Assembly (NCBI RefSeq): GCF_000969905.1 | Contig: NZ_CP009520.1 | Span: 4,402,001 to 4,466,000 of the forward strand | Length of the DNA stretch: 64,000 nucleotides | From: Methanosarcina vacuolata Z-761 | GTDB taxonomy: Archaea; Halobacteriota; Methanosarcinia; Methanosarcinales; Methanosarcinaceae | Reading direction: 5' to 3' | Shown here: piece by piece, positions 14,371-52,889 of the stretch | Numbering within the stretch: the stretch's first letter is position 1 | Layout: each line of letters starts with the position of its first letter | The notes under the pieces: generated by a model | The model's input: only the letters and a program-made list of their open reading frames with translations | The model's database searches: none | Told to the model about the DNA's origin: nothing | Translations under genes and position numbers: made by a program

Positions 14371-14781
14371 ATGACAACGATAAACGAAGCTTTTCGGATG
14401 TTCTTGAATGAACAGGAAGGCAACTTGAAACCTGATACCTTCCTGGACCTTGAAGATGTGATCCTTCTTTACGAGGAATTCCTTGAATTCAGTGCAGAAG
14501 ATTCTTTTTCTGAAGAAGACAGAGAACTTTATAATACCCGGCACGAAAACGAAAACAGGAGTTACTGCGACATTTTCGGCCCTGAGCATCTCACCCCATC
14601 AGGAATTAAAGAATTCCTCGATGATTATGTAGTTGAGGTAGGAGGAGGCAAGAAGTTTATAGGTACAGCCGCGAAAGTCATTGAAAAATTCTTTGAATGG
14701 GCTCAGGAAAAAGGTTACATTGACGAGAAGGCTTTAGAAGTAAACAGCGAAGTTCTCAGGAAATATAAGAAAAGGTACTGA
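14371..14781 (+). CDS. paralog 1 of an integrase-N-domain-like family (short form)
   Basis: This 136-residue acidic protein is homologous to the next three genes over its whole length. The helical pattern near the N-terminus (AFRMFLNEQEGNLKPDTFLD and onward) resembles the SAM-like core-binding domain of tyrosine recombinases, but no catalytic domain is present. The later W-(A/L)-x-EKGYI segment is shared by all copies. It lacks the roughly 100-residue C-terminal beta-rich domain of its relatives, and nothing resembling that domain follows the stop, so the copy is C-terminally truncated. Function unknown. Confidence 0.65.
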   Translation: MTTINEAFRMFLNEQEGNLKPDTFLDLEDVILLYEEFLEFSAEDSFSEEDRELYNTRHENENRSYCDIFGPEHLTPSGIKEFLDDYVVEVGGGKKFIGTAAKVIEKFFEWAQEKGYIDEKALEVNSEVLRKYKKRY

Positions 14782-15100
14782 TGTTGCGTAACTAGCAAAA
14801 TGTCGTAAAAATCAATCGCAATTATTCAGAATCGTTAAATCCTTGAGGGTTGACGAGACAGTAAACAATGTGTTGAAGAAATTTTTTCTGAAATAGAGGC
14901 TTGAAAAGCCTGCTTTCAGGTAGTCCTTTTCCTTTTTTGCTCATTCTGTTAATCCCGTTAATTCTGTGGATTCCATTTATTTCGGTTATTTATTAAACAT
15001 TTTGAATTTATTTATCCTTGGAAAGGGAGTAGGTCGGAAACTCTCAAAAGCAGGGCAAAATCTTGAAAAATTGGAAAAACAATTCTCTTATAGAACTGCC
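14782..15100. other. Intergenic region between paralogs 1 and 2
   Basis: About 320 bases. A short perfect inverted repeat (AGGCTT/AAGCCT) at about 14897-14911 is followed by a pyrimidine-rich stretch and may end transcription of paralog 1. No gene was seen. Confidence 0.45.
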
Positions 15101-15814
15101 ATGAAAACGATAGATGAAGCTTTTCGGGAATTTTTAAAAGAGCAAAAAAGAGAGTTGAGTCCCAGGACACATCGGGACTATGAAAATTTAATCTCTCTTT
15201 TTGAGGAATATCTCGATGTTTGTGCTTCTGATGACCTTTATGAAGAGGATCAGGAACTCTATAAAGAGAAGCATAAGAACGAGCATAAAGAATACTGCCA
15301 GATTTTTGACCTTGCGTATATTGTGCCTTCAGATATTGAATATTTCCTTGAGGATTATCTAATTAATGATTTTGGAGGGAGCGCGGCTTTCGTTGAAACT
15401 TCGCGGCGTTTTTTCCGTAAATTCCTGCCCTGGGCTTATGAAAAAGACTACCTTGATCCAGAGCATTATAGTGAACTTGCTAAGGTTGTAGGGAATATAA
15501 GAAAAAAAGGGAAAAAGACTGCTTCTCAAGTTCAGAAATTTGGCAGTTTGCTCTGCGATTATGTGGACGCACATCCGGCTGAGGAGAGTCCAGAGTGGAA
15601 AGAGGGAGATTTTGAGATCAGGAGAGTCGAACCCGGAAAGTTATGGGTAGAGGATTATCTGGACCCTTACATCGAAATCGGGCCTGTTAAGGTTTCGGAA
15701 GAAGTGAGTTCGCTGGCAAAGACAGGCTGGTACCTTAATTTCGGAATAGTAAAAGTCGGGGACTTCTGGCAGATAGTATATGTAGAGGGAGTTTCGTCCC
15801 GCTGTCCTTATTGA
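15101..15814 (+). CDS. paralog 2 of the integrase-N-domain-like family
   Basis: This 237-residue protein was started at the ATG at 15101, which aligns with the starts of the sister genes; the frame upstream is open but unrelated. Residues about 1-140 are the helical SAM-like region. Residues about 150-237 are a second domain with the family signature EPGKLWVEDYLD, a VSEE(V/I)SS motif and a terminal W-x-I. No catalytic residues of recombinases (Arg, His, Tyr) are present. No recognised function. Confidence 0.7.
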   Translation: MKTIDEAFREFLKEQKRELSPRTHRDYENLISLFEEYLDVCASDDLYEEDQELYKEKHKNEHKEYCQIFDLAYIVPSDIEYFLEDYLINDFGGSAAFVETSRRFFRKFLPWAYEKDYLDPEHYSELAKVVGNIRKKGKKTASQVQKFGSLLCDYVDAHPAEESPEWKEGDFEIRRVEPGKLWVEDYLDPYIEIGPVKVSEEVSSLAKTGWYLNFGIVKVGDFWQIVYVEGVSSRCPY

Positions 15815-15902
15815 AAAGCTCGGCACTTTCTGGAATTATTGAATATCTCCGGGATTTTTAAAAGAAAAAGAATATCAAAGAACGGGAGGTAAGGTCGATA
15901 AA

Positions 15903-16613
15903 ATGAAAACGACAGTCAGTAGGTCAATTCATGAAATTCTGAGGGAATTCCTGGCTGAACAGGAAGCCCGCCTGAGCTCTAAAACCTATTCTGGATATGA
16001 AGAGGCAATTTCTTTTTTCAGGACATATCTCAATAACTTCGGGCATCAGCACTTGAATAGGGCTGAGACTGAAAGATATGAAAAACTTGAAGCTTCCGAA
16101 GACAAGCAGTTCTGGGACATTTTTGGCCCTGAACACCTTCGCTCTTCGGAAATCTCTGATTTTCTGGCCGATTTCATGGTCAGAAAGGTTGCAGGCAGCA
16201 GGACCCTTATGGAAACAACAGGCAGGGTCATGTATAAACTGGTCAAATGGCTGCATGAAAAAGGTTACATGCCTGATAAAGAATATGAAGAAGCGGCTGA
16301 AAACGTAAAAGAACTCAAAACCGCCCTCCCGTTAGTTGGAGAAGTTACTGACCTGATCTGTGATTATGTAGAGCGACATCCGGTTGAAACCCGGTATACC
16401 AGTGACCTTGATGCATATTTCGATATCGTAAAAATCGAGCCTGGAAAGCTCTGGCTTGAAGACTACCTGGAATCAGGAAAACGCGTCGGGCCGGTTGTCG
16501 TTTCTGAGGAAATCAGTTCAAAGTGCAAAGTTGGCTGGACGGTGTCCCTCTGGGTTGCAAAAACGGGAAAGGTCTGGAGGATTCTCGAAAGTGGGAATGT
16601 GCTGCCCCGATGA
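15903..16613 (+). CDS. paralog 3 of the integrase-N-domain-like family
   Basis: This 236-residue protein has a strong ribosome binding site (GGGAGGTAAGG). The two-part architecture matches paralogs 2 and 4. The C-terminal signature is EPGKLWLEDYLESG, then VVSEEISSKCKVGWTV, then AKTGKVWRILESGNVLP. It is the most complete member and is useful as the reference for judging the amber codon in paralog 4 and the decayed copy at 17.8 kb. The lysine of AKTG is the position occupied by UAG in paralog 4. Confidence 0.72.
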   Translation: MKTTVSRSIHEILREFLAEQEARLSSKTYSGYEEAISFFRTYLNNFGHQHLNRAETERYEKLEASEDKQFWDIFGPEHLRSSEISDFLADFMVRKVAGSRTLMETTGRVMYKLVKWLHEKGYMPDKEYEEAAENVKELKTALPLVGEVTDLICDYVERHPVETRYTSDLDAYFDIVKIEPGKLWLEDYLESGKRVGPVVVSEEISSKCKVGWTVSLWVAKTGKVWRILESGNVLPR

Positions 16614-16733
16614 GAAGAAAGTCCAGTTTTGTATTCTAACGGCCTATAAAGAGCCAATATGAGTTCTTCATGCCAATTTTTAAGATCGATGATTTACTTT
16701 AGTTTAATTAAAAGATTGTAAATAGGAAATGCC

Positions 16734-17390
16734 ATGAAAAGTACGAAAGAAAAGACTCTACAGAAAGTTTTTCAGGAATTTCTGGCTGAGCAGCAGAGCG
16801 TCCTGAAGCCTCAGACCTATTCAGGAAGTAAACTTGCGATCAACTATTTCGAGCGTTATCTCAATGGCTATGGATCTGAAAATCTGACAGAGACGGAACT
16901 GGAGAGATACGAAGAGCTGTCTGAAGGCAAAGGAAAGGAATATTGTGAGATCTTTGGCCCCAGTCATCTCGGGCTCAAGGAAATGGAGTCTTTTCTCGGC
17001 CTTTTTATGGTTTTGAGGGTTGAAGCCAGTAAAAACTTCCTGGCTATTGTGGGAAGGGTTATGCACAAACTGGTGAAGTGGCTGCACGAGAAAGGGTATC
17101 TGGCTGACGGTGATTATAAAATAATGGACAGGAGAGTAAAAGAACTCAAGGCCGACCTCCCTATAGCGGTAGAAGTAAATGGCCTGATGTCTGAATATGC
17201 TGCAAAGTCTCCACGTGGGAAATACACGGAAGAGCTGAAAAGCCGCTTCACCATCAAAAAAATCGAGCCCGGAAAATTGTGGCTTGAGGATTTAATGGGC
17301 CCAGGAAAACTTACAGGGCCTGCTCTCGTTTCCGAAGGAATCAGTTCCATGTGCAAGACCGGCTGGACTGTAGTGCTCTGGATAGGGTAG
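16734..17390 (+). CDS. paralog 4 of the integrase-N-domain-like family, ending at an amber codon (possible pyrrolysine readthrough to 17450)
   Basis: There are 218 residues up to a TAG at 17388-17390. Without the TAG the frame continues for 19 more codons, to a TGA at 17448-17450, and the added residues (TGSVWKVIDSTVVYP and onward) match the conserved C-terminal end of paralogs 2 and 3. The TAG therefore falls inside the conserved domain, at the position of Lys in the AKTG motif. Because Methanosarcina inserts pyrrolysine at UAG, the full product may be 238 residues with Pyl at position 219. A recent nonsense mutation is the simpler alternative. Confidence 0.7.
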   Translation: MKSTKEKTLQKVFQEFLAEQQSVLKPQTYSGSKLAINYFERYLNGYGSENLTETELERYEELSEGKGKEYCEIFGPSHLGLKEMESFLGLFMVLRVEASKNFLAIVGRVMHKLVKWLHEKGYLADGDYKIMDRRVKELKADLPIAVEVNGLMSEYAAKSPRGKYTEELKSRFTIKKIEPGKLWLEDLMGPGKLTGPALVSEGISSMCKTGWTVVLWIG

Positions 17391-17450
17391 ACAGGAAGTG
17401 TGTGGAAGGTAATTGATAGTACGGTTGTGTATCCTATTACTGAATACTGA

Positions 17451-17764
17451 CTTTCTGATCCTTTTTTGCTTTTTCTTCTCTTTTTCACTCTTTTTTGCCT
17501 TTTCTTACTTTTTTCACTTTATATTGTCTTTTTTGCCTTTTTTCACTCTTTCGTGCTCTTTTCAGTCTTATTTTTTCTGTTCTCCAGTCAAATGCCTGTA
17601 AACACTATCAAATAGAGCTCTCTTAAATATATCACCAAAATCTCTATCATCATTGATTTTTCTGGATACTTTGACTGCTATCAATTAGCATTATAGCTTT
17701 ACTTTCATTTCAAACTTCCAACAATTTAGTCAACTGCTTATAATGTAGTTGAGACCATCAATAA
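17451..17764. other. T-rich gap between paralog 4 and the decayed copy
   Basis: About 310 bases. The first 130 are dominated by long T and C runs of the kind that follow archaeal genes and probably terminate transcription. The rest is AT-rich with no gene. Confidence 0.5.
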
Positions 17765-17998
17765 CTTGAAAATCCTGTTAAAAATTATTCTGAAACTCTG
17801 GATGATTTCTTCATTATTACCGAGATTAAAACCGGAAAACTCTGGTTTGAGAGTTATTCGGAAGGGAAAAATATTGGGCCTGTGCTTGTTTCAGAAAAAA
17901 TCAGTTCCATGTGCAAGGTGGGTTGGACTATTTGCCTCCTGATTGCAAAAACAGGGAACAACTGGAGGGTTCTGGAAAGCGGGAACATGTATCCTTAA
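17765..17998 (+). pseudogene. decayed fifth copy: C-terminal fragment of the same family
   Basis: About 77 codons are open and align with the C-terminal domain of paralogs 2-4, from the (H/N)PV region through KTGKLWFESY, VSEKISSMCKVGWT and AKTGNNWRVLESGNMYP to a TAA stop. The N-terminal half is missing and there is no start codon or ribosome binding site. The TAG position of paralog 4 is AAA (Lys) here. The fragment shows that the array once had at least five members. Confidence 0.75.
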
Positions 17999-18136
17999 TT
18001 GATATTTGATTGAAAAATCTTTTTTTAAAAAATTTCATCATGCTACGTAATACTCTTTTTTACCATTGGTACCAAGCGACTGATTAAGCGACTGATTAAG
18101 CGACTGATTATTTGTAAACTGAATAGTCACAAGCTA

Positions 18137-22008: not shown

Positions 22009-22337
22009 GTTATAAGCTATTTTTAGCAATTACTATTTTTAGCAATTAATCATTTCCAAACATGCAACTGATATTTTAATAAGGAGCCCATCCTAAAACT
22101 AATTTCACCGTCAAATTAGTAAAATGTCAAAATTATTTTCGTGATTCGAAAATTTACTGATTATTGCGGATATGGGATTCAGAGTAATTTTGAGTTTTAG
22201 GGTCAGCTTATTATCAAATTATTGAGAGTATAACCTAAAATTAGTAAAATGATGCCTAAAATCAGTGAAAGAATATCTAAAATAAGTGAAATATACCCAT
22301 AATCAGTTAAAGAATTCTCAAAAATAGATAACGATAG
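22009..22337. other. AT-rich gap between the 14-bp repeat and tRNA-Lys
   Basis: About 330 bases. Degenerate repeats of AAATCAGTGAAA or AAATTAGTAAAA type occur at 22225-22330. No gene was seen. Confidence 0.4.
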
Positions 22338-22411
22338 CGGGCCCGAAGGGATTTGAACCCCCGGCCTATGGATTAAGAGTCCATCGCTCTGCCTGACTAA
22401 GCTACGGGCCC
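22338..22411 (-). tRNA. tRNA-Lys (anticodon CTT)
   Basis: A 74-base cloverleaf on the minus strand. The acceptor stem is GGGCCCG paired with CGGGCCC, followed by discriminator G, with no encoded CCA. The anticodon stem is ATGGA/TCCAT around loop CTCTTAA, giving anticodon CTT. The T loop is TTCAAAT. No intron was seen. Confidence 0.95.
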
Positions 22412-45379: not shown

Positions 45380-45432
45380 ATAACAAGGGCTTAATACCCA
45401 GTTGAATTTATTGAAACAAGAGTATCTTGCAT

Positions 45433-47592
45433 ATGAAAAGTATTTTGGGTATGAAAACTTCTCAGCCGCTCTCAAGCCTGCGGGAAATTCATGGAATCGG
45501 TGAACGGGTAGCCGATAGGCTGATTGAGCATTTCGGAACTGAAGAGGCGGCTCTTCAGGCTATTTGCGAGGGTGATATAGCTTCGCTTTCTGAAGTCAAC
45601 GGGATCAGCCGCAATTTTGCCCTTTCCCTTGCCCGGTATGCCAAGTCCAGGGCTGAAGGCTGCTCAATTTCCGATTTTCTCAGGACAAAAGAAGCCCTGA
45701 GTCTTTATTCTCACCTGCTTGAGCTGATAAAAAGTTTTGCCCATACAACGCATGCCAGGGATAAGCTAAACCTTTTTTACCCATTACCTGCTTCGCGCAT
45801 GGATCTTATCCAGGAGAGACAGGCTTTCGTAAGAGAGTATCTTGAACTGGGAAATGCATTCCCCGAGAATTCCGAATTTCTTAAATTGCTTACTAGAGTC
45901 AGTGAACTTAGGCCTGTTCCCGGGAACCTGAGAGTCAGGGACCGGATAATTCTTTGCGGAGATTCAAAGACCCTTGAAGCAGCCAGAGAAAAGTTCCAGG
46001 GCTTCTTGCCTGTACAGGCTGTAGAAAACCTATCGGAATTCGTGGATCTTGCAAGAGGTTATTCCAGCGTAATTGTTTTTGATGATACTTATCTTGGTTT
46101 TGATCTACCTGAAGACATTGAACCCGAATATTTCCATGACCTTTCCAGAGCTGAACTCTGGCAGGTCTTGCCTGAAAAAGAACTGGCGTTTTTTGCACGG
46201 AATCTTGACTGTATCCACGCCTGCCTGAGTATCGTATCAGCTCTCCGCTCAGAAAACTTTGAGCTCTTTGAGGAGTTTTCAAAAGAGAAGCTTGATACAC
46301 TCGATACCGCACTCTCAAAGCTCGGTGAGGATGGTAAACCTGTTGAAGGTTTTGACCCTGAACTTGACAGGCTCGGAGCAGCCCTGCAAAACCTGGACCC
46401 CACATTGACTTTGGCCCTGAATGAGGCTAACCAGCGCATGAACCATGCCCTTGAGGCAAGCTCGCTTACTCTAAGCGGGCAGGAACTTGTCAGGCTTGTG
46501 AGCGGGGGAATGGAGGTTAAAGACCTTCTTACAAAGGAACTTAATAGAATCTATAAAACTGAAACTGAAACCGTCAAAGAAGAGCTTGCTGAAAAGTTAG
46601 GGCTTCAAAAGCAAGAAAAACTAATGCTTGATTCACTTTTTCCTGATGAAATTTCCTACCCTCTATATGCAGAACAGTCCCAGTTGCAGCTTCTCAGGCA
46701 AAAGTTGAACAATAGCCTTGAGAAAACAAGGCTTGCCAGGAAAAGGGAACTTGCAAAAACGCTTTCAGGTTTTCACCAGCCTGTAGAAAAACTTGTCAGG
46801 AAAGTTCTGGATTTTGACCTTGGCTTTTCAATTTCCTGTTTTTCAACAAAATTCCATCTTAATCTGCCCGAGCTGATTCCCGAAATCGGAATAGGTTTTA
46901 CAGACGGAGAAAACCTCTTTTTAAAAGCTCGTTATGGAAAGATCGATCCTATCAGTTATTCCATCGGAAAAACCGGATTTTCCCCGGCAGGCCTGGAAAA
47001 CAGGGTTGTGCTCTTGAGTGGAGTAAACTCAGGCGGTAAGACTTCCCTGCTCGAGCTCCTTGCCCAATGCGTAATTCTTGGGTACATGGGCTTTCCGGTT
47101 CCTGCAAAAAAACTTGAACTCGGGCCTGTAGAGGAATTCTACTATTTTGGAAAATCAAAAGGAACTCTCGATGCAGGAGCTTTCGAGACTACCCTCAAGC
47201 AATTCTCGGTGCTCTCCGAAGCCTCAGAAAAACTGGTGCTTGCGGACGAACTGGAATCGATCACTGAGCCTGGAGCTTCTGCACGAATTATAGCAGGAAT
47301 TCTTGAATATCTGTCCAGAAATGAACAGAGTCTTGGAGTTTTTGTCTCTCATCTTTCGGAACTTATCCTTGAAAATACCGGAACGGAAGTAAGAGTAGAT
47401 GGGATTGAGGCAGATGGACTGGACTCCAACCTTGAGCTAATCGTAAACCGGAATCCTGTATACAACCGTATTGCTCGAAGCACTCCCGAGCTGATTGTGG
47501 AACGGCTGTTCAGAAAGACCACTGGAAAAGAGCAGGAGTTTTACTCACATTTAAAGGATAAATTTAAAACTGGCTCAAAAGTAAACCTTTAG
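45433..47592 (+). CDS. archaeal MutS-related ATPase with N-terminal helix-hairpin-helix
   Basis: About 719 residues. Residues about 15-75 contain two helix-hairpin-helix motifs (IHGIGERVADRLIEHFG and VNGISRNFALSLA). The C-terminal third is a MutS-type ATPase: Walker A LSGVNSGGKTSLL at about 529 and Walker B KLVLADELESITEP, then a SHLSEL switch. The middle lever region is helical. The mismatch-sensing domains of true MutS are absent, so it probably acts in recombination or DNA-structure processing. ATG 45433 or 45451 are candidate starts. It ends in TAG, with 40 open codons of low similarity to anything beyond. Confidence 0.85.
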   Translation: MKSILGMKTSQPLSSLREIHGIGERVADRLIEHFGTEEAALQAICEGDIASLSEVNGISRNFALSLARYAKSRAEGCSISDFLRTKEALSLYSHLLELIKSFAHTTHARDKLNLFYPLPASRMDLIQERQAFVREYLELGNAFPENSEFLKLLTRVSELRPVPGNLRVRDRIILCGDSKTLEAAREKFQGFLPVQAVENLSEFVDLARGYSSVIVFDDTYLGFDLPEDIEPEYFHDLSRAELWQVLPEKELAFFARNLDCIHACLSIVSALRSENFELFEEFSKEKLDTLDTALSKLGEDGKPVEGFDPELDRLGAALQNLDPTLTLALNEANQRMNHALEASSLTLSGQELVRLVSGGMEVKDLLTKELNRIYKTETETVKEELAEKLGLQKQEKLMLDSLFPDEISYPLYAEQSQLQLLRQKLNNSLEKTRLARKRELAKTLSGFHQPVEKLVRKVLDFDLGFSISCFSTKFHLNLPELIPEIGIGFTDGENLFLKARYGKIDPISYSIGKTGFSPAGLENRVVLLSGVNSGGKTSLLELLAQCVILGYMGFPVPAKKLELGPVEEFYYFGKSKGTLDAGAFETTLKQFSVLSEASEKLVLADELESITEPGASARIIAGILEYLSRNEQSLGVFVSHLSELILENTGTEVRVDGIEADGLDSNLELIVNRNPVYNRIARSTPELIVERLFRKTTGKEQEFYSHLKDKFKTGSKVNL

Positions 47593-51640: not shown

Positions 51641-52138
51641 ATGACGACCTCATATAATGAAAACACAGACCAGGAAGTTAATTTGACTCCTCCAGAACAA
51701 GAATATATTGTTGAACTTTTGAAAGATGATTTTGTTTGTACCCAAAGTGCTTCATCTTCAATATCAACTGAGGAAGATGTAGAACTGCTAGAATTCACCG
51801 AAGCATCTGAAAACATCTTTGAAATATCCTTAACAGGAATCTCCATAGTGAAAGGACAAACAAGATATAATAAAGCATACGTAGGCTCAAAAGCACTTTA
51901 TCTTGACATATCTTTGAGTTGGGGAAGTGCGAGAAATATCCTGAGCCTTACTATATATTCTCCTACAGGCGTCTCTTATGGGGCTTATAAACCACAATCA
52001 GGCTCAAATTCAATAGTCTTACGTGTAAGACCAAAAACAGGGACATATCTACAAGGAGGATACTGGAAACTCAACGTGTTCGGAGCATCAATCAGTGGAA
52101 CTGAGTACTATACGCTTAAAGCTGCCTATCATACCTAA
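51641..52138 (+). CDS. PPC-domain-like secreted protein, signal peptide apparently frameshifted
   Basis: This 165-residue product starts at ATG 51641. Residues about 75-165 look like a pre-peptidase C-terminal beta-sandwich (YLDISLSWGSARNILSLTIYSP, GGYWKLNVFG, YTLKAAY). Such domains are normally secreted, yet this start gives no signal peptide. Upstream, a hydrophobic start from ATG 51580 (MRTINQNIYISIFLHLF) is in another frame and would join after loss of one T from the six-T run at about 51626-51631. The downstream wHTH gene overlaps its end by 44 bases. Confidence 0.6.
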   Translation: MTTSYNENTDQEVNLTPPEQEYIVELLKDDFVCTQSASSSISTEEDVELLEFTEASENIFEISLTGISIVKGQTRYNKAYVGSKALYLDISLSWGSARNILSLTIYSPTGVSYGAYKPQSGSNSIVLRVRPKTGTYLQGGYWKLNVFGASISGTEYYTLKAAYHT

Positions 52139-52889
52139 GCTTCAAAATGTAGTAATTCTTTTTTTATTATTTATCTTTTTAATAGCAACAGCTGAGGCTA
52201 CGGAATATACTGTAGAACCCATTTCAAGTGATCAATTTGGGGTTCCAATTAATGGAGAAAAGGTTGTAGAAGTTCAAGTTATCGAAATACCCTACTGGCA
52301 GTTTCTTTTGTGGCTGGTCACAGTGAACATCTTAGCGGCAGTTGACTTACTATATTCTAAAAGAATAATTTTCTCAATAGCGGGATATAAAATTGTAAAC
52401 TCTAAAAACGTACTTGACAATCCCAGCCGTCTTAACATCTACACCTATATTAAAACCAATCCTGGAGCATATATTAGTGAGATTGTAGGAAATGTCGGTT
52501 TAGACAGGGAAAGTATAAAATATCACATAAAAGCCCTTGAAGCTCAGAACAAAATCGAAGCCTATAGAGAGGGTGGGAAGACAAGATTCTTCGAAAATAA
52601 TTTTACTTATAATGAGAAAGAGATAAGAGTTATTTCTGTCCTTCAGAACGTAATGAATCAAAGAATTATTGCAGAAATATTAACTTGTAATTGTAATACA
52701 AATATTGCTCTTGCACGTGAACTTGGAGTTTCTAGGGCTACAATCAGCTGGTATATAAAAAATCTCAGAGAAATTGGCCTTATAACAGAAACAAAAGAAG
52801 GAAGAAATACGATTTACAGAATAAATCATGTATATGAACTCGTTGTTGAAAAACATATTAAGCAGTTACAGAGCTCTTACAATAACTAG
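52095..52889 (+). CDS. membrane-anchored regulator with two winged-helix domains
   Basis: This 264-residue protein has a signal-like hydrophobic segment (residues about 17-33), a short external stretch, a second hydrophobic helix (about 69-90) and then two winged-helix domains. The first is in residues about 112-160 (AYISEIVGNVGLDRESIKYH) and the second about 190-245 (IALARELGVSRATISWYIKNL). The topology suggests a one-component membrane sensor of a type common in Methanosarcina. The GTG start has GGAGC upstream and overlaps the preceding secreted-domain gene, suggesting a sensor-partner pair. It ends in TAG. Confidence 0.8.
   Translation: MELSTIRLKLPIIPKLQNVVILFLLFIFLIATAEATEYTVEPISSDQFGVPINGEKVVEVQVIEIPYWQFLLWLVTVNILAAVDLLYSKRIIFSIAGYKIVNSKNVLDNPSRLNIYTYIKTNPGAYISEIVGNVGLDRESIKYHIKALEAQNKIEAYREGGKTRFFENNFTYNEKEIRVISVLQNVMNQRIIAEILTCNCNTNIALARELGVSRATISWYIKNLREIGLITETKEGRNTIYRINHVYELVVEKHIKQLQSSYNN

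What the first reader, a model, noticed from the sequence alone, without database searches (positions are those of the whole stretch)
16734..17450. In-frame UAG inside a conserved domain: candidate pyrrolysine codon outside the methylamine methyltransferases
Paralog 4 stops at TAG 17388-17390, but the same frame continues 19 codons to TGA 17448. Those codons match the conserved C-terminus of paralogs 2 and 3 and of the decayed copy (T-G-x-x-W-x-(V/I), then a P near the end). The residue aligned with the TAG is Lys in paralog 3 and the relic (AKTG). A Lys AAG to TAG change is one base and Pyl is a Lys derivative, so readthrough would restore a full-length protein. It could equally be a fresh nonsense mutation.
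Basis: partly seen in the sequence, partly recalled or inferred. Interest (0 to 1): 0.7.

Follow-up and report, generated by a model that had tools for sequence, protein, structure and literature searches.

The report
Amber nonsense mutation, perhaps incidental pyrrolysine
In one Methanosarcina genome a lysine codon in an accessory gene has become the stop codon TAG; the cell can probably read it now and then as pyrrolysine, but it looks like a chance mutation in a gene group that often decays, not an adopted use of the 22nd amino acid.

Summary
The frame starting at 16734 stops at TAG 17388-17390, runs on for 19 codons to TGA 17448, and the tail is homologous to relatives. The TAG replaces one of the most conserved residues of the domain: Lys in nearly every relative, encoded AAG in five of six orthologues of this gene. 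The encoded protein is predicted as a recombinase-type core-binding domain plus an OB fold; termination at TAG would remove the last OB strand. The genome has pylTSBCD and mtmB with TAG, so some pyrrolysine readthrough is plausible. Nothing supports a selected pyrrolysine. TAG occurs only here; six orthologues in other species have Lys (5) or Asn (1). The gene lies in a tandem array that decays repeatedly, with sister copies broken by TAA, TGA, TAG, frameshifts and deletions; one orthologue has a Lys-to-TAA change. There is no PYLIS match. The tail shows no detectable purifying selection on this branch, although that test is weak. From AAG the only stop one base away is TAG, so the stop's identity is not evidence. 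Best reading: a neutral nonsense mutation, incidentally decoded at times, like Thg1 of M. acetivorans. Sister strains and peptides could not be checked.

The parts
16734..17390 (+). Paralogue 4 as it terminates at TAG (218 aa)
17388..17390 (+). In-frame TAG in place of a conserved Lys codon (AAG in five of six orthologues), in strand beta4 of the OB fold
17391..17450 (+). 19 conserved codons (end of the beta4/beta5 hairpin, beta5, tail) and TGA stop
17217..17447 (+). C-terminal OB-fold domain (residues 162-238), interrupted by the TAG
   Evidence: AlphaFold2 model pLDDT 92.2; VIA-align Z about 6 to SSB and cold-shock domains
16734..17204 (+). N-terminal tyrosine-recombinase core-binding (SAM-like) domain, residues 1-157; no catalytic domain in the ORF
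   Evidence: VIA-align Z 12.5 to 3nrw, 9.6 to lambda integrase; Pfam PF13102 on paralogue 2
14371..14781 (+). Paralogue 1 (core-binding part only)
15101..15814 (+). Paralogue 2
15903..16613 (+). Paralogue 3
17768..17998 (+). Relic of paralogue 5 (C-terminal part only), a decayed neighbour
   Evidence: full-length in the Ant1 genome (L037 5957-6640)

Best explanation
A single AAG-to-TAG change turned a conserved Lys codon into amber in one copy of an accessory, repeatedly decaying gene array next to argS. Release-factor termination would give a 218-aa protein lacking the last OB strand and probably non-functional (inferred). Because the cell has charged tRNA-Pyl during methylamine growth, a share of ribosomes probably insert pyrrolysine and finish at TGA 17448, giving a 238-aa protein (inferred from known biology). 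The TAG is neutral or slightly harmful; pyrrolysine has no selected role in this protein.
For: TAG only in this genome. Orthologues: AAG Lys in M. acetivorans-size G001, G110, G111, G113 and the broken Ant1 copy; Asn in the G024 remnant. Paralogue 4 is missing or reduced to fragments at the argS locus of all but the window and G001 among the Methanosarcina loci examined. Array members are broken by all three stops: TAA at a Glu site in G003 paralogue 3, one TAA and three TGA in G003 paralogue 2, Lys-to-TAA plus frameshift in Ant1 paralogue 4, TAG in remnants of G023 and G024. No PYLIS match, and the downstream fold is ordinary (z -1.3). Codon models with paralogue 3 as outgroup: omega 0.53 on the window branch against 0.22 elsewhere (p about 0.04), 1.03 in the tail on that branch, omega = 1 on the branch not rejected. 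Decoding capacity.
Against: Apart from the TAG the reading frame is intact and its branch is no longer than that of the M. acetivorans orthologue (0.34 against 0.36), so it has not been a pseudogene for long. The omega signal is marginal and vanishes without the outgroup. No sister strain, RNA or peptide data were available.
Confidence: 0.77

Rival explanations
1. Functional pyrrolysine: UAG is regularly read as pyrrolysine, the full-length protein is what the cell uses, and the TAG is kept by selection, perhaps linking expression to methylamine growth.
For: Intact Pyl machinery; intact frame on both sides; the invariant G and W after TAG are kept in the tail.
Against: TAG confined to one genome and Lys in the orthologues; tail shows no detectable purifying selection on this branch; no PYLIS match, though PYLIS is not required (PMC8211752).
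Confidence: 0.07
2. The 218-aa truncated protein is the functional product; the core-binding domain suffices, as in paralogue 1, which lacks the OB domain.
For: Paralogue 1 is a conserved stand-alone core-binding protein next to argS; window-branch omega upstream of TAG is about 0.5.
Against: TAG cuts inside the OB fold and leaves four of its five strands, which is not a clean domain loss.
Confidence: 0.1
3. Sequencing or assembly error at 17388; the real codon is AAG.
For: One base separates TAG from AAG and only one genome is available.
Against: Isolated substitution errors are rare in a near-complete two-contig assembly; reads were not available.
Confidence: 0.04

Closest known systems
Thg1 (tRNA-His guanylyltransferase) of Methanosarcina acetivorans, pyrrolysine by neutral evolution (Heinemann 2009, cited in PMC2933860)
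   Same: Single-species in-frame amber in an ordinary gene of a Pyl-decoding archaeon whose homologues lack it; not needed for activity.
   Different: In Thg1 pyrrolysine was physically observed; here readthrough is only inferred, the site is a nearly invariant Lys, and the gene is an accessory member of a decaying array.
MtmB/MtbB/MttB methylamine methyltransferases
   Same: In-frame TAG within a continuous frame.
   Different: There the TAG is conserved across genomes and catalytic; here it is unique to one genome and the protein is unrelated.
Ordinary nonsense-mutated pseudogenes of the same array (G003 paralogues 2 and 3; Ant1 paralogue 4)
   Same: Same gene family and locus, in-frame nonsense codons.
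   Different: Those carry TAA or TGA, which cannot be Pyl, and two of the three have further lesions; the window copy has a single TAG.

Membership tests
Pyrrolysine-containing protein | Host has tRNA-Pyl, PylS and Pyl biosynthesis | tested here: met
   pylS 409.6 bits, tRNA-Pyl (cta), ORFs in pylBCD order, two mtmB genes with TAG
Pyrrolysine-containing protein | Frame and homology continue beyond TAG to a non-TAG stop | tested here: met
   19 codons to TGA, none of 200,000 shuffles as good
Pyrrolysine-containing protein | TAG conserved in orthologues (expected if selected; not met by Thg1 either) | tested here: not met
   Five AAG and one AAC in six orthologues
Pyrrolysine-containing protein | Purifying selection downstream of TAG since it arose | tested here: inconclusive
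   Tail omega about 1.0 on the window branch with outgroup, uninformative without; 19 codons
Pyrrolysine-containing protein | Pyrrolysine observed in the protein | not testable with these tools
   Needs mass spectrometry
PYLIS-bearing mRNA | Rfam PYLIS match or unusual stable structure after UAG | tested here: not met
   No Rfam PYLIS match at E<=5; fold z -1.32
Tyrosine recombinase | SAM-like core-binding domain | tested here: met
   3nrw Z 12.5, lambda integrase Z 9.6
Tyrosine recombinase | C-terminal catalytic domain | tested here: not met
   Residues 162-238 form an OB-like fold instead

The most novel reading that the evidence does not exclude
UAG 17388 is efficiently read as pyrrolysine and the Pyl form of this putative DNA-binding OB-fold protein is selected, giving a methylamine-dependent switch between truncated and full-length protein.
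Probability: 0.06. Interest if true: 0.65.

Novelty: new member of a known kind. Interest (0 to 1): 0.24.

Why it matters
It is a small natural test case for how a cell that reads UAG both ways tolerates amber mutations: a near-invariant lysine in a predicted beta strand becomes UAG, and Pyl readthrough could mask the damage for a while. If so, Pyl-decoding archaea would lose genes to TAG more slowly than to TAA or TGA, which can be tested across strains. As a case of a new pyrrolysine protein it is weak.

Tried and rejected
Conserved tail as proof of readthrough: rejected, a recent nonsense mutation leaves the same conservation. PYLIS element: none found. Base rate of in-frame stops from 400 kb of this genome against a relative: the few hits were two single TAA and one single TGA in the window's genome, at least one of them in a low-complexity tail, and no single TAG; too few and too noisy to say whether TAG is over-represented. 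Plasmid and viral copies of the family: none found. NCBIfam and PHROGs: no family. Foldseek on the whole model gave no match at E<=0.001; the domain calls rest on VIA-align. A sister strain (a Kolksee plasmid matches at 98.9%) could not be searched because its chromosome is not held. The Thg1 and archaeal termination papers are not held and are cited through reviews.

Full report
The frame from ATG 16734 reads 218 codons to TAG 17388-17390, then TGSVWKVIDSTVVYPITEY and TGA 17448-17450. In the relatives the TAG column is Lys (21 of 23; Arg in two), and the G and W after it are invariant in the first alignment. Tail similarity to the orthologue in G001 (5,751,492 bp, the size I remember for M. 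acetivorans C2A) is far above chance.

The genome is a Methanosarcina: its small contig matches a Methanosarcina sp. Kolksee plasmid at 98.9%, and its genus-mates include a contig titled Methanosarcina sp. Ant1. I think it is M. vacuolata, from memory of genome sizes. It has pylS, tRNA-Pyl, ORFs in the order expected for pylB, pylC and pylD, and two mtmB genes with in-frame TAG. UAG can thus be decoded. No cis element is strictly required for Pyl insertion; it is thought to compete with termination (PMC8211752; PMC9499178).

The gene is the fourth of a tandem array between argS and a 170-aa ORF. The AlphaFold2 model (pLDDT 92.2, 11 sequences) gives a helical N-terminal domain resembling tyrosine-recombinase core-binding domains (3nrw Z 12.5; lambda integrase Z 9.6) and a C-terminal beta-beta-beta-alpha-beta-beta domain resembling OB folds (SSB, cold shock; Z about 6), with no recombinase catalytic domain. 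Residue 219, the TAG, lies in strand 212-220, and strand 223-233 would be lost on termination. A role in DNA binding is inferred from fold only.

Comparison across genomes decides most. Orthologues of this copy form a clade (support 1.0). The codon is AAG in G001, G110, G111, G113 and the broken Ant1 copy, AAC in the G024 remnant, TAG only in the window. Paralogue 4 is absent from the argS locus of the M. barkeri-like genomes G002, G003, G004, G005 and G029, and the array decays repeatedly: deletions that appear to fuse paralogues 3 and 5 in G004 and G029, TAA in paralogue 3 of G003, four stops in its paralogue 2, TAA and a frameshift in Ant1 paralogue 4, TAG in the G023 and G024 remnants. TAA and TGA cannot be pyrrolysine, so nonsense decay is ordinary here. 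From AAG the only stop one base away is TAG, so its identity carries no information.

With paralogue 3 as outgroup, omega is 0.53 on the window branch against 0.22 elsewhere (2 delta lnL 4.1, p about 0.04); the tail on that branch has omega 1.03, above its background (2 delta lnL 4.5, p about 0.03). Omega = 1 over the whole branch is not rejected (2 delta lnL 3.0, 2 df). Without the outgroup nothing can be resolved. This leans toward relaxed constraint and gives no support for selection on the tail, but it is weak. The window copy has 6 changes at family-conserved columns, TAG included, against 1-3 in the other orthologues. No PYLIS was found.

The known precedent is Thg1 of M. acetivorans: an amber acquired in that species only, translatable as pyrrolysine and not needed for activity (PMC2933860). 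A 2013 survey lists further candidates it regards as neutral drift (PMC3639795). The present case works like Thg1 at best, and membership as a proven pyrrolysine protein is not shown. Verdict: a recent, probably neutral nonsense mutation with possible incidental Pyl readthrough; ordinary, with a modest use as a natural experiment.

Noticed in passing
14371-18000: Tandem array of core-binding plus OB-fold proteins beside argS with birth, fusion and decay across Methanosarcina and a sister genus; no curated family in NCBIfam or PHROGs.
   Followed up: partly
L035 5939-5430: In G004 the 170-aa ORF that follows the array has an in-frame TAG at codon 16 (Gln in the window), directly followed by a codon that is ATG in the window's copy.
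   Followed up: no
L051 7020-8135: The pylB ORF of this genome reads through one TAG near its end, as expected if pylB itself ends in TAG as reported for M. mazei and M. acetivorans.
   Followed up: no
45427-47592 and 52095-52889: Two other long window ORFs end in TAG, with in-frame extensions of 41 and 17 codons; conservation not tested.
   Followed up: no
22337-22411: The window's only tRNA gene found is tRNA-Lys(ctt), whose anticodon reads AAG.
   Followed up: no
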